This document shows, piece after piece, positions 17,655 to 23,247 of a stretch of DNA of 23,247 nt. Source of the stretch: a virus; IMG/VR virus record IMGVR_UViG_3300025930_000038, positions 1 to 23,247 of that record; one strand, 5' to 3'. The notes beneath the pieces were generated by a model that did no database searches, was not told the DNA's origin, and saw nothing but the letters and a program-made list of their open reading frames with translations. Each line of letters opens with the position of its first letter. Positions within the stretch are counted from its first letter, which is position 1. A program made the translations under genes and the position numbers.

Positions 17655-17666
17655 GTCCGGGAATTA
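17655..17666. repeat. Left copy of 12-bp att-flanking direct repeat
   Basis: GTCCGGGAATTA occurs here and again exactly at 17853-17864, on either side of the tRNA-derived core and in the same orientation, 198 bases apart. Possible recombination-protein or regulator binding site. Confidence 0.6.
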
Positions 17667-17684
17667 GCCCCGACGAGGGGCGTT

Positions 17685-17707
17685 GGGGCAACCCTGTGGG
17701 GCAACCC
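17685..17707. repeat. Left arm-type repeats (two GGGGCAACCC)
   Basis: GGGGCAACCC at 17685-17694 and 17698-17707, spaced 13 bases start to start. The same motif with the same 13-base spacing recurs on the other side of the core. They fit arm-type binding sites of a tyrosine integrase N-terminal domain. Confidence 0.6.
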
Positions 17708-17741
17708 CACCGAAATCGCTTGTGTTTATCGTGTCGGTTTC

Positions 17742-17800
17742 GATAGAGGCCCGCCCTCCTAAGGCGGGGGTCGTGGGTCCAAATCCCACCGGGCGCGCCA
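17742..17800 (+). other. attP: attP core: 3' part of tRNA-Arg(CCT)
   Basis: The segment reads as a tRNA from the end of the D arm to CCA: anticodon stem CCGCC, loop CTCCTAA (anticodon CCT, arginine), stem GGCGG, T stem GTGGG/CCCAC with loop TCCAAAT, acceptor strand CGGGCGC, discriminator G and CCA (17798-17800). The 5' acceptor strand and D arm are absent upstream, so this is not a working tRNA gene but the piece a phage carries to rebuild the host gene on integration. It lies beside the integrase, with phage genes on both sides, consistent with attP rather than attL/attR. The T-loop has C where T is normal (position 55). Confidence 0.85.
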
Positions 17801-17836
17801 TATTTTGCAAAGGGTTACGGGGATTCGCGGTTTCGG

Positions 17837-17846
17837 GGGTTGCCCC
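17837..17846. repeat. Inverted arm-type repeat, right of core
   Basis: GGGTTGCCCC is the reverse complement of the GGGGCAACCC repeats found twice on each side. It is the only copy in the opposite orientation and lies 37 bases beyond the CCA end of the core. Confidence 0.55.
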
Positions 17847-17852
17847 AGGCCC

Positions 17853-17864
17853 GTCCGGGAATTA
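17853..17864. repeat. Right copy of 12-bp att-flanking direct repeat
   Basis: Identical to GTCCGGGAATTA at 17655-17666. Followed by an AT-rich stretch to about 17900, unusual in this GC-rich genome and possibly a DNA-bending region. Confidence 0.6.
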
Positions 17865-17902
17865 TCCAAAATTGCTAGGAAATACTATTGGTGAGAAATC
17901 AT

Positions 17903-17925
17903 GGGGCAACCCCATGGGGCAACCC
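17903..17925. repeat. Right arm-type repeats (two GGGGCAACCC)
   Basis: GGGGCAACCC at 17903-17912 and 17916-17925, again 13 bases apart and in the same orientation as the left pair. Confidence 0.6.
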
Positions 17926-17929
17926 CAAC

Positions 17930-17979
17930 GGTAGAACTTTCCGGTAGAAAGTCCGGCGCCGGTAGAAATCCCGGTCGAA
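17930..17979. repeat. GGTAGAA direct-repeat array
   Basis: GGTAGAA occurs at 17930, 17943 and 17961, and a variant GGTCGAA at 17973; start-to-start distances are 13, 18 and 12. The array lies between the right arm repeats and the reverse-strand gene end. It may bind a second factor such as an excisionase. Confidence 0.55.
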
Positions 17980-17998
17980 CAATCCGGGGACGCAGTTT

Positions 17999-18316
17999 TC
18001 AGCGGGGCGCGTTGAGGGCGAGGGCGAGGGCTTCGCAGTGCTGATCGAGCGCGTCGGCGCGCGACGTCGCGCGCGTCTGGTATTGGTCGTGAGGCCCGCC
18101 GAAGATCATCGTTTCCCAGAGCACCGGCGCGCCGCGCCCGAAGAAATTGTGGTCGAGGCCGAGGAACACGGTCGACACCTGGACGCCATCGGGCAGGTCA
18201 TCGCGCGCGACAATCCGCGCCTCGGTGTTCGCAAACCACTCCGCCCACGTCTGCCAGTCGTCGCAGATTTCCGGGTCCCCGTGGGCGTCGAGCACGTAGT
18301 AAAGCCGGTGCATCAT
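17999..18316 (-). CDS. Conserved phage hypothetical protein, 105 aa
   Basis: The protein begins MMHRLYYVLDAHGDPEICDD and contains VSTVFLGLDHNFFGRGAPVL followed by WETMIFGG. The STVFLGLDHNF..G.P.L.ETMIFGG pattern is one I associate with a widespread small phage protein of unknown function. Its start overlaps the integrase stop codon (ATGATG over TGA), so it is co-translated with the integrase on one leftward transcript. It could be a small accessory to lysogeny, but no function is known. Confidence 0.78.
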   Translation of the reverse strand: MMHRLYYVLDAHGDPEICDDWQTWAEWFANTEARIVARDDLPDGVQVSTVFLGLDHNFFGRGAPVLWETMIFGGPHDQYQTRATSRADALDQHCEALALALNAPR

Positions 18317-19518
18317 CGCGCGCCGGATTTTACAAGGCGCAGCGGCGCGACGGTCGGCGCCGCGGGCAGCGACGGCACCGCCGCATAGACGACGGCGGCG
18401 GACGCGATGGCGGCGCGCACGCGCTCGGAGACGGCGCCCTTCGTGTAGCGGGCCGTGGTGTCGAGACCGGCGTGCTGCAGGAGTTCCTTGACGACGAGCG
18501 GGTCGCCCGTCAGTCGATACATCTCCGATCCGAACGAGTGGCGCAGGTCATAGGGTTTGCACCCGGGCGGCAGCGTCAACAAATCCTGCAACCACGAGTC
18601 GTCGCCCGTCCGCGCGTGGTGATCGGCGGCGGCGCGTTGCGCGCGCTCGATGCCGCGGAGCCACGTTTGCCGCATCGACGAGCGCGACCAGGTCTTCCCG
18701 AACAACCCCGCCGCCGCAAACGCGCGCAGCGCGTCGACCGCGGGTGGGATCACGTTGACCCAGGACCCCACGACGCCTTTGCCCTTCCGCCGCGCGGTGA
18801 GATACATGCGGCCGTGCGCGAGGTGCTTCAAGTGCTGGGGCGTCACCCGGCGCAGCGTGGCGCCACCCATCCCGGTCCAGGCCATGACCGCGAGGCGCAC
18901 TTTCGTGAGATTCACCTTCGGGCGTTTCTGCCCCTTGTCGGCGCGCCCGAGATCGGGCAGCGAGTCGACGATCAGTTTGACCGCGCGCGTGGGGATGTCG
19001 CGCGGTTCGACCTCGTCCTCCTTGCGACCCTTGATCCCATCGGTGGGGTTCGCGCCGGGATAGAGGCGCCGGTAGAGCAGGCGCAGGCGCACGAGGCGTT
19101 TGTTGCACGTATTGGTCGCGGCGCGGTCCTCCGTCCATCGCGCGATCTGCCCGATGATGTCGAGGTCCGTAATCTCGCGCGCGGACATCGCGCCGAGCGG
19201 GGAGCGGACCCACGCGCCGAGGATCGTCTTGCTGTCGTTGCGATAGCGACCCTCGGGCAGCGTGGCGAGGTAGGTCGGCACGTCGGCGGCGAGGGTGCCG
19301 CGCGCGGTCCCCGCGGCGGGGCGCGTTTTGAGGAACTTCGCCTTCGTGCTCAGGCGCCACGCAATCATCGTGTTCGTGGCGGTGCTGAGTGGGAACTCCT
19401 CGCGCACGCGCTCTTGGTTGCCGTCGCGGGAACTGCCGACGCGCACCTCCGCGATCTTGAGATTGCCGTCGCGCCAGATGCCCGGGGCGATGCGTTGTAT
19501 GCGACGTTGTCGAGCCAT
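18313..19518 (-). CDS. int: Tyrosine recombinase (phage integrase)
   Basis: 401 residues. Residues 1-65 form a short basic, beta-rich arm-binding-type domain. About 70-165 is a SAM-like core-binding domain, and 175-385 the catalytic domain. Visible catalytic residues: K245 or K247 in RRKGKG, R326 in KPYDLRHSF, H349 in LLQHAG and Y358 in TARYTKG. Two positions are unusual: the first catalytic Arg, normally in TG(L/M)R, is Gly (TGMGGATL, 215-222), and the His of HxLR is Tyr (Y323). It lies beside the tRNA-derived core and should catalyse integration into, and with an excisionase excision from, tRNA-Arg(CCT). Transcribed leftward from the AT-rich region. Confidence 0.92.
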   Translation of the reverse strand: MARQRRIQRIAPGIWRDGNLKIAEVRVGSSRDGNQERVREEFPLSTATNTMIAWRLSTKAKFLKTRPAAGTARGTLAADVPTYLATLPEGRYRNDSKTILGAWVRSPLGAMSAREITDLDIIGQIARWTEDRAATNTCNKRLVRLRLLYRRLYPGANPTDGIKGRKEDEVEPRDIPTRAVKLIVDSLPDLGRADKGQKRPKVNLTKVRLAVMAWTGMGGATLRRVTPQHLKHLAHGRMYLTARRKGKGVVGSWVNVIPPAVDALRAFAAAGLFGKTWSRSSMRQTWLRGIERAQRAAADHHARTGDDSWLQDLLTLPPGCKPYDLRHSFGSEMYRLTGDPLVVKELLQHAGLDTTARYTKGAVSERVRAAIASAAVVYAAVPSLPAAPTVAPLRLVKSGAR

Positions 19519-19634: not shown

Positions 19635-19765
19635 CGCGGGCAGGCTGTCACCACCGAAACTCCCCCGTAGTTACGGCCTGATTTGATTATTTGAATGCTC
19701 ACAGCGCGCTCGGAACCGGGCGCGCGTTGTCGTCGTTGTCGGCAGATCGGAGTCGATTCGCGCCA

Positions 19766-20062
19766 ATGAAAACCCCACCCGCGATTACGAATCTCGACCA
19801 ACTTCCTGTGATCCTCACGCTCCGCGAAATCTGCGGGATCTATCGCATCTCTCCATCGACCGTGCGCAAGGGTTTGCAGCTCGGCACGTTCCGCCCGCGT
19901 CCGTTCGAGTGGTATCCGTATCGCTGGAAGCTCGCCCACGTCGTGGCCGACCTCGACCGCGAGCGCGACGAACGCACCGTGCGGAACCACGGCTTCCGCG
20001 CGCGCGCGTTGAAGGCGCCGTTGGTGAAAAAAACTAAGGCGCGGCGCACCGGCACGCGCTGA
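19766..20062 (+). CDS. Excisionase-like helix-turn-helix protein
   Basis: 98 residues from ATG 19766. Residues ~12-45 contain LTLREICGIYRISPSTVRKG, a MerR/excisionase-type helix-turn-helix (HTH_17-like: LT..E.A...g.s..TV.k). RWKLAHVVADLDRERDE continues the typical wing and final helix. The C-terminus is strongly basic. As first gene of the rightward early operon, divergent from int, it may be the recombination directionality factor or an early regulator. An earlier TTG start at 19691 is open but has poor codon use. Confidence 0.7.
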   Translation: MKTPPAITNLDQLPVILTLREICGIYRISPSTVRKGLQLGTFRPRPFEWYPYRWKLAHVVADLDRERDERTVRNHGFRARALKAPLVKKTKARRTGTR

Positions 20063-22924: not shown

Positions 22925-23247
22925 ATGGCGGCGTTTTGTGCGGAGCCTGGGTGCGGCGTCGTGGTCGCGTCGGGACGCTGCCCGGTGCACGCCCGCACCC
23001 AGGACCTCGCGCGAGGATCCAGCCGCGCGCGAGGCTATGGGAGTCGGTGGGCGAGGCGCGCCGCCCTGTTCCGTGCCCGGTATCCCCTATGCGGGATGCG
23101 ACCCGGTGGCCGCGCGCCGGTGCTGTCGCGGTGCTTCGATGAGGGTCGGGTGACGTTGGCGTATCAGGTCGACCACGTCGTGCCCCACAAGGGTCGACCT
23201 GAGCTTTTCTGGGATGAACTCGGGAACTGGCAGTCATTGTGCGCCGC
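22925..23247 (+). CDS. HNH endonuclease, truncated by the window end
   Basis: ATG 22925 one base after the previous stop; 107 codons are present and the frame is still open at base 23247. Cysteines at C5, C10 and C19 with H22 (FCAEPGC...GRCPVH) and the later PLCG form the typical zinc-binding part. YQVDHVVPHKGRPELFWDEL followed by NWQSLC is the HNH core (D-H, P-H, W-D, N). The final H and K(T) of the family are missing only because the window ends. Phage HNH proteins of this type work with terminase at the cos site. Confidence 0.9.
   Translation, partial: MAAFCAEPGCGVVVASGRCPVHARTQDLARGSSRARGYGSRWARRAALFRARYPLCGMRPGGRAPVLSRCFDEGRVTLAYQVDHVVPHKGRPELFWDELGNWQSLCA

What the first reader, a model, noticed from the sequence alone, without database searches (positions are those of the whole stretch)
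17655..17979. attP with symmetric, 13-bp-phased arm repeats around a tRNA-Arg(CCT) core
The tRNA-derived core (17742-17800) has GGGGCAACCC pairs on both sides (17685/17698 and 17903/17916), each pair exactly 13 bases apart, plus one inverted copy (17837). A 12-bp repeat GTCCGGGAATTA also flanks it at 17655 and 17853. This ordered layout looks like a complete intasome template: core sites plus arm sites for the integrase N-terminal domain. Such arrays are well described for lambda Int, but this motif is not one I know.
Basis: partly seen in the sequence, partly recalled or inferred. Interest (0 to 1): 0.65.

Follow-up and report, generated by a model that had tools for sequence, protein, structure and literature searches.

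The report
Phage attP with paired arm sites
The repeats around the tRNA fragment are a phage's docking template for inserting itself into a bacterial tRNA gene, and about twenty related phages keep the same five-site layout almost to the base pair while rewriting the sequence of the sites, which shows how integrases can change what DNA they read.

Summary
GGGGCAACCC occurs five times in the 23,247-base phage record, all within 17684-17926: two pairs at 13-bp phase and one inverted copy around a tRNA-Arg(CCT) 3' half, next to a tyrosine integrase. 0.1 copies are expected by chance.

The interpretation, an attP with integrase arm sites, is strongly supported by comparison. A scan found 20 virus contigs encoding integrases 33-58% identical. 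All have a direct-repeat pair at 12-14 bp phase on each side of the att region, usually with one inverted copy between one pair and the core. The motif differs between genomes, but the copies within a genome agree (87% identity, against 48% between genomes; 0 of 2000 permutations). Site positions stay within 1-3 bp in most genomes.

Integrase rather than excisionase is the likely reader, inferred mainly from one natural experiment (L025). Nothing was tested biochemically.

Corrections: the layout is not symmetric, and the GTCCGGGAATTA repeat occurs only in this phage. Mycobacteriophages L5, Giles and CrimD have comparable arm pairs, so the principle is known. The family, its fixed geometry and its missing catalytic Arg I look new.

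The parts
17684..17695 (+). Arm-type site P2 (outer site of the tail-side P arm), TGGGGCAACCCT
   Evidence: equivalent site at +90 from the T arm in 15 of 16 mapped genomes (+91 in L036)
17697..17708 (+). Arm-type site P1 (inner site of the tail-side P arm), TGGGGCAACCCC
   Evidence: 13 bp from P2
17751..17800 (+). attP core: 3' half of tRNA-Arg(CCT). Anticodon loop CTCCTAA (17756-17762) is the probable 7-bp crossover region, flanked by the anticodon stem as inverted core-type sites
   Evidence: Read from sequence; homologous tRNA 3' ends at the same place in relatives. Crossover position is inferred from tRNA-targeting phages in general, not tested
17836..17847 (-). Single inverted arm-type site of the integrase-side P' arm
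   Evidence: inverted copy near -62 from the T arm in most relatives (degenerate in L024 and L043, doubtful in L034)
17902..17913 (+). Arm-type site P'2 (inner site of the P' pair)
   Evidence: -128 from the T arm
17915..17926 (+). Arm-type site P'1 (outer site of the P' pair)
   Evidence: -141 from the T arm, 13 bp from P'2 (12 bp in most relatives)
17655..17666 (+). 12-bp repeat GTCCGGGAATTA, first copy; role unknown, possibly an excisionase or bending-protein site
   Evidence: absent from relatives
17853..17864 (+). 12-bp repeat GTCCGGGAATTA, second copy; role unknown
18313..19518 (-). Tyrosine integrase, 401 aa: N-domain (about residues 7-65), core-binding and catalytic domains; transcribed towards attP
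19691..20062 (+). Excisionase-like HTH protein, divergent from int; conserved part begins near the ATG at 19766
   Evidence: PHROG excisionase hits E 0.002-0.003; homolog upstream of nearly every related integrase

Best explanation
This is the attP of a temperate phage. Divergently transcribed int and excisionase-like genes lie beside it. The integrase is a heterobivalent tyrosine recombinase. Its core-binding and catalytic domains act on the tRNA-Arg(CCT) core, probably exchanging strands in the anticodon loop, so that integration rebuilds the tRNA from the phage-borne 3' half. Its N-terminal domain holds the arms through five copies of TGGGGCAACCCC: a direct pair in each arm and one inverted copy in the P' arm. 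DNA bending between core and arms lets one integrase molecule bridge both kinds of site. Shown here: the sites, their conserved geometry, their concerted change across relatives, the linkage to this integrase family, and the predicted fold.
For: (1) The five copies are far above chance and confined to this locus. (2) An independent contig, 100% identical, joins the record's two ends across 50 bases, so phage DNA lies on both sides of the tRNA fragment: attP, not attL or attR. (3) All 20 fetched relatives with integrase identity of 33% or more have 12-14 bp-phased pairs on both sides of their att region. In the 20 regions counted, pairs peak at phases 12 and 13: 21 pairs each, in 15 and 17 regions; no other spacing from 10 to 40 exceeds 11 pairs. 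(4) Offsets from the T arm are about -140, -128, -62, +77, +90 within 1-3 bp in most genomes, although the motifs read GGGGTTGCCCCA, GGGGCCATCCCA, TCCCCGCCCCA, GTGTCACGCAG, GGGGCACGCAC, TGTCCCATGCAC, AGGGTACACAC or CTACCAAGTGA. (5) Copies agree within a genome (87%) and not between genomes (48%); 0 of 2000 permutations reach this. (6) The integrase model aligns with full-length lambda Int, model residues 2-374, Z 16.6. (7) L025 is the window's nearest relative in catalytic domain (62%) and excisionase (63%), but has another motif and a diverged N-domain (43%). Two sheet arginines, R26 and R37, kept by the seven other group members with that domain, are Cys in L025, while its excisionase recognition region is 90% identical to that of L043, whose motif lacks the change. 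(8) An exact IHF consensus lies in 9 of 13 attPs, 8 of them on the P' side near the same place; 0.1 expected.
Against: No binding or recombination data exist. Overall motif distance correlates with Int N-domain, Int catalytic domain and excisionase distances alike, and no partial test separates N-domain from excisionase. Within the group of eight the N-domain sheet is only suggestive (r 0.50, p 0.08). The isolated N-domain model has no convincing structural match (best Foldseek E 0.49; AP2 domains at Z 3.8-4.4 among unrelated folds). The window itself lacks an exact IHF consensus. No host genome or attB was found. The integrase lacks the canonical Arg I, so its activity is not assured.
Confidence: 0.86

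Rival explanations
1. The five copies are binding sites of the excisionase-like HTH protein, or are shared by excisionase and integrase, and serve to switch directionality.
For: The HTH homolog is as constant a companion as the integrase. L004 has a closely related HTH protein and one motif pair but an unrelated P4-type integrase. The distant integrases L044 and L045 lack the HTH homolog and have other repeats of 21-22 bp phase. MerR-like proteins can bind direct repeats cooperatively (PMC11963761).
Against: The sites lie in both arms; in lambda only Int has sites in both arms (site map in PMC4880445; that Xis sites are confined to the P arm is general knowledge). L004 and L005 look like relics: their pairs sit 54 and 55 bp from a CTTAGAAG tRNA-Arg(TCT) anticodon-loop block, the same distance as in live attPs (counted by eye). 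L025 against L043: almost the same HTH recognition region, different motif. L044 and L045 still have arm repeats on both sides of a tRNA core without any HTH homolog.
Confidence: 0.1
2. The repeats are tandem-duplicated G4-N3-C4 hairpins or terminators with no role in recombination.
For: The motif is nearly self-complementary and could form a short hairpin. Exact 13-bp tandem pairs also occur in 7 bacterial contigs where none of our integrase or excisionase queries match.
Against: Relatives replace it with sequences that cannot form such hairpins (CTACCAAGTGA, AGGGTACACAC, GTCCCATGCAC) at the same positions. Tandem slippage does not explain an inverted copy and a distant second pair.
Confidence: 0.02
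3. The repeats are operator sites with which the integrase or HTH protein represses int, the recombination role being secondary.
For: An integrase gene regulated through its att region is known (PMC2951348, seen as title and abstract only).
Against: int is transcribed towards attP with a 105-aa ORF in between, so its promoter should lie at its far end beside the HTH gene. In L042 the pairs are about 3 kb from int, and in L039 on its other side in reverse orientation.
Confidence: 0.02

Closest known systems
Mycobacteriophage attPs with paired arm-type sites: L5, Giles, CrimD/Anaya/Adephagia, Pixie (PMC3203893)
   Same: Pairs of short repeats flank a tRNA- or tmRNA-derived core. L5 and Giles pairs are in direct orientation. 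Pixie has a pair, a triplet and one inverted outlier. Related integrases differ in arm consensus, ascribed there to the N-domain.
   Different: Here the integrase family is another one (no hit at E 1e-5 in 50,697 phage records). One inverted copy sits inside the P' arm. Some ten motif versions share one geometry of 12-14 bp phase.
Lambda attP and Int (PMC4880445)
   Same: Five arm-type sites, N-terminal arm-binding domain plus core-binding and catalytic domains, IHF sites between core and arms, separate excisionase.
   Different: Motif, site order and phase differ; 12-14% sequence identity; Arg I and the first His of the catalytic pentad are replaced.
ICEMlSymR7A attP / IntS (PMC11963761)
   Same: Five arm sites in a 283-bp attP, all five reported as needed for efficient integration; winged-HTH directionality factor.
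   Different: Consensus TGKTGGTATC; element type. Layout was not compared site by site.
IntDes and IntCTnDOT subgroups of tyrosine recombinases (PMC8138268)
   Same: Arm-binding domain; first catalytic Arg shifted or absent; in IntDes the first His is Tyr, as here.
   Different: IntDes is reported only from Desulfovibrio. Whether the present family groups with it was not tested.

Membership tests
Lambda-type attP (heterobivalent integrase) | Repeated arm-type sites on both sides of a core, distinct from core sites | tested here: met
Lambda-type attP (heterobivalent integrase) | Core identical to a bacterial attB | tested here: inconclusive
   Core is a tRNA-Arg(CCT) 3' half, as in known tRNA-targeting phages, but no host or attB was identified
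Lambda-type attP (heterobivalent integrase) | Bending-protein sites between core and arms | tested here: inconclusive
   Exact IHF consensus in 9 of 13 attPs of the family, absent from the window
Lambda-type attP (heterobivalent integrase) | Arm sites bound by the integrase N-domain | not testable with these tools
   Only indirect: predicted sheet-plus-helix domain and the L025 natural experiment
Tyrosine recombinases | Fold and nucleophilic tyrosine | tested here: met
   Y358 invariant in the aligned family; PF00589 hits in all 21 members; Z 16-17 to Tn1549 Int and lambda Int
Canonical RKHRH tyrosine recombinases | Arg I in TGxR and His in HxxR | tested here: not met
   [TA]G[ILMW][PGAS] in all 21 members, aligned to TGLR of XerD; PYxxRH in place of HxxRH. 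IntDOT and IntDes are precedents (PMC8138268)
IntDes subgroup | Shifted Arg I together with His-to-Tyr | tested here: inconclusive
   Residue pattern agrees; no sequence or tree comparison with IntDes was made

The most novel reading that the evidence does not exclude
A previously undescribed phage integrase family without canonical Arg I keeps a five-site attP scaffold fixed almost to the base pair while its N-domain and all arm sites change specificity together, repeatedly. This yields about ten naturally distinct arm codes readable from sequence, and the scaffold can move to another core (L042).
Probability: 0.55. Interest if true: 0.62.

Novelty: new variant of a known kind. Interest (0 to 1): 0.5.

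Why it matters
Arm-site recognition decides whether related phages or vectors cross-react, yet the recognition rules of integrase N-domains are known for few examples. This family gives about ten motif versions on one scaffold, with matching integrase sequences, so a recognition code can be proposed and tested by domain or residue swaps: for example R26 and R37 against a G-C step in the site, suggested by L025. It also offers candidate orthogonal integration systems and a way to annotate attP in uncultured phages by geometry instead of by sequence.

Tried and rejected
Exact-motif scans: 3 viral and 7 bacterial contigs. In the bacterial ones no integrase or excisionase query matched, so the motif alone is not diagnostic. 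L006 was set aside: three copies, but an unrelated integrase several kb away. Single-sequence and two-sequence integrase queries missed nearly all relatives; the three-sequence alignment found them. No relatives in GenBank phages. Mantel tests could not separate integrase N-domain from excisionase. The N-domain-only fold search listed no integrase arm domain in its top rows, only weak AP2 hits among unrelated folds. GTCCGGGAATTA as a conserved element: rejected, though a few other genomes have their own second repeat beyond each pair (permutation p 0.006). Literature searches found no description of this family, but most subscription papers are not held.

Full report
Observation. The window is a whole IMG/VR virus record of 23,247 bases with terminase, portal, capsid and tape-measure genes. 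GGGGCAACCC occurs five times, only at 17685-17925 (0.1 expected). The unit is TGGGGCAACCCC. The tRNA-like block is the 3' half of tRNA-Arg(CCT), ending in CCA at 17800. A second contig, L003, 100% identical, bridges the record's two ends with 50 bases between them. The phage DNA is therefore circular or permuted, and the tRNA fragment has phage genes on both sides: this is attP, not attL or attR.

Neighbours. int (18313-19518, minus strand, 401 aa) reads towards the site. A small HTH protein (19691-20062, plus strand) with weak PHROG excisionase hits is divergent from it.

Relatives. Exact-motif scans gave few hits. L014, found through the HTH protein, has the same layout with another motif: TGTATGGGACGG/TGTATGGGACAA, tRNA-Arg(CCG) core, an inverted copy, then a second 13-bp-phased pair. 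An alignment of three integrases then retrieved 23 viral loci. In the 20 with 33-58% identity, a 12-14 bp-phased direct pair lies on both sides of the att region (L031, L039 and L042). Some loci are near-duplicates (L028/L029, L034/L035). L042 has a core that is apparently not a tRNA half, and in L039 attP lies on the other side of int. L040 is the same contig as L014.

Geometry. With the T arm as zero and int direct, sites start near -140, -128, -62 (inverted), +77 and +90. The +77 is partly a choice of register for divergent motifs; the other distances are not. Deviations: L026-L030 (tRNA-Val core) have the P' side shifted by 20 bp; L036 and L040 by about 10 bp. Phase is 12 or 13 in P', 13 in P, and 14 in L036. 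The inverted copy of L034 is doubtful. Spacer DNA in genomes of equal geometry is only about 42% identical (25-27% for shuffled columns), so the spacing is held while the sequence drifts. The relatives share some descent in these spacers, so they are not fully independent.

Concerted change. Copies within a genome are 87% identical, the same position between genomes 48%; 0 of 2000 permutations reach the former (13 non-redundant genomes). L043 has two motif versions, one per arm.

Which protein reads the sites? Integrase and HTH protein travel together, and distance correlations do not separate them. Three observations favour the integrase. First, sites occur in both arms. Second, L044 and L045 (28% identity) lack the HTH homolog, yet have their own arm repeats (GCAACTTT, 21-22 bp phase) around a tRNA core. 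Third, L025 is closest to the window in catalytic domain and HTH protein but has a different motif, and its N-domain has lost R26 and R37, which the seven other members of its group with a complete N-domain keep. In the model these residues should lie opposite each other in the beta-hairpin (strands 20-29 and 34-43; pairing inferred from strand limits). This is one genome and is not statistically secure.

Relics. The GGGGTTGCC pair of L005 (same contig as L044) and that of L004 each lie at the live-attP distance from a CTTAGAAG anticodon-loop block (counted by eye). They are read as P arms left behind after another integration module took over. This would explain why L004 carries the pair with an unrelated Arm-DNA-bind_3 integrase.

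Structure and catalysis. The model (pLDDT 86) has a sheet-plus-helix N-domain; the whole chain aligns with lambda Int residues 7-356 (Z 16.6). The N-domain alone gives only weak hits, AP2 domains among them, so its fold assignment rests on topology and on the full-length alignment. No member has Arg in the TGxR position, and the first His of the pentad is Tyr.

Accessory sites. WATCAANNNNTTR occurs in 9 of 13 attPs, 8 of them on the P' side at -32 or -42 from the T arm; 0.1 expected. The window has none exactly. GTCCGGGAATTA is private to the window.

Known comparison. Paired arm sites around a tRNA or tmRNA core are known from L5, Giles and CrimD, where related integrases also differ in arm consensus (PMC3203893). 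Five arm sites are known from lambda (PMC4880445) and ICEMlSymR7A (PMC11963761). Integrases without Arg I in its usual place are known from CTnDOT and IntDes (PMC8138268). The principle is therefore known. The family, its fixed geometry and the number of motif versions are not described in the papers that could be searched.

Noticed in passing
18313-19518 and members of alignment A5: The integrase family lacks catalytic Arg I ([TA]G[ILMW][PGAS] instead of TGxR) and has Tyr for the first His of RKHRH; R208 and R243 (window numbering) are invariant and could substitute.
   Followed up: partly
L004:3327-3811: A P4-type integrase and a window-type excisionase gene whose stop codon lies in CTTAGAAG, 54 bp before a motif pair: looks like a recombined relic of a window-type attP.
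   Followed up: partly
L044:6299-6510 (same contig as L005): attP with GCAACTTT arm repeats followed by a tRNA-Arg(TCT) fragment and a GGGGTTGCCCC pair at the canonical distance: a fossil P arm beside what looks like a working attP.
   Followed up: partly
L042:9270-9580: Same pair geometry about 3 kb from int, but the core is GCACGGC-TCAGAGG-GCCGTGC (reverse strand), apparently not a tRNA half.
   Followed up: no
L039:1-330: attP on the other side of int and in reverse orientation, motif CTTCCAAGCGG, tRNA-Arg(TCT) core.
   Followed up: partly
L024, L025, L031, L033, L043 attP outer flanks: An outer inverted repeat ACTTTCGC ... GCGAAAG(T) encloses the attP.
   Followed up: no
17929-17985: CCGGTAGAAA-like repeats (TTTCTACCGG on the other strand) lie directly outside the P' pair; role unknown.
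   Followed up: no
17864-17885 and relatives: A conserved AT-rich block (TATTTCCTAGCAATTTTG in the window, int-direct strand) lies between the P' pair and the inverted copy; it may be a bending-protein site.
   Followed up: no
17775-17786: The phage T loop reads GGTCCAAATCC where most relatives have GGTTC; it would place C at position 55 of the rebuilt tRNA.
   Followed up: no
window ends (1 and 23247): L003 joins base 23247 to base 1 with 50 bases between, so the genome is about 23.3 kb and essentially complete.
   Followed up: yes
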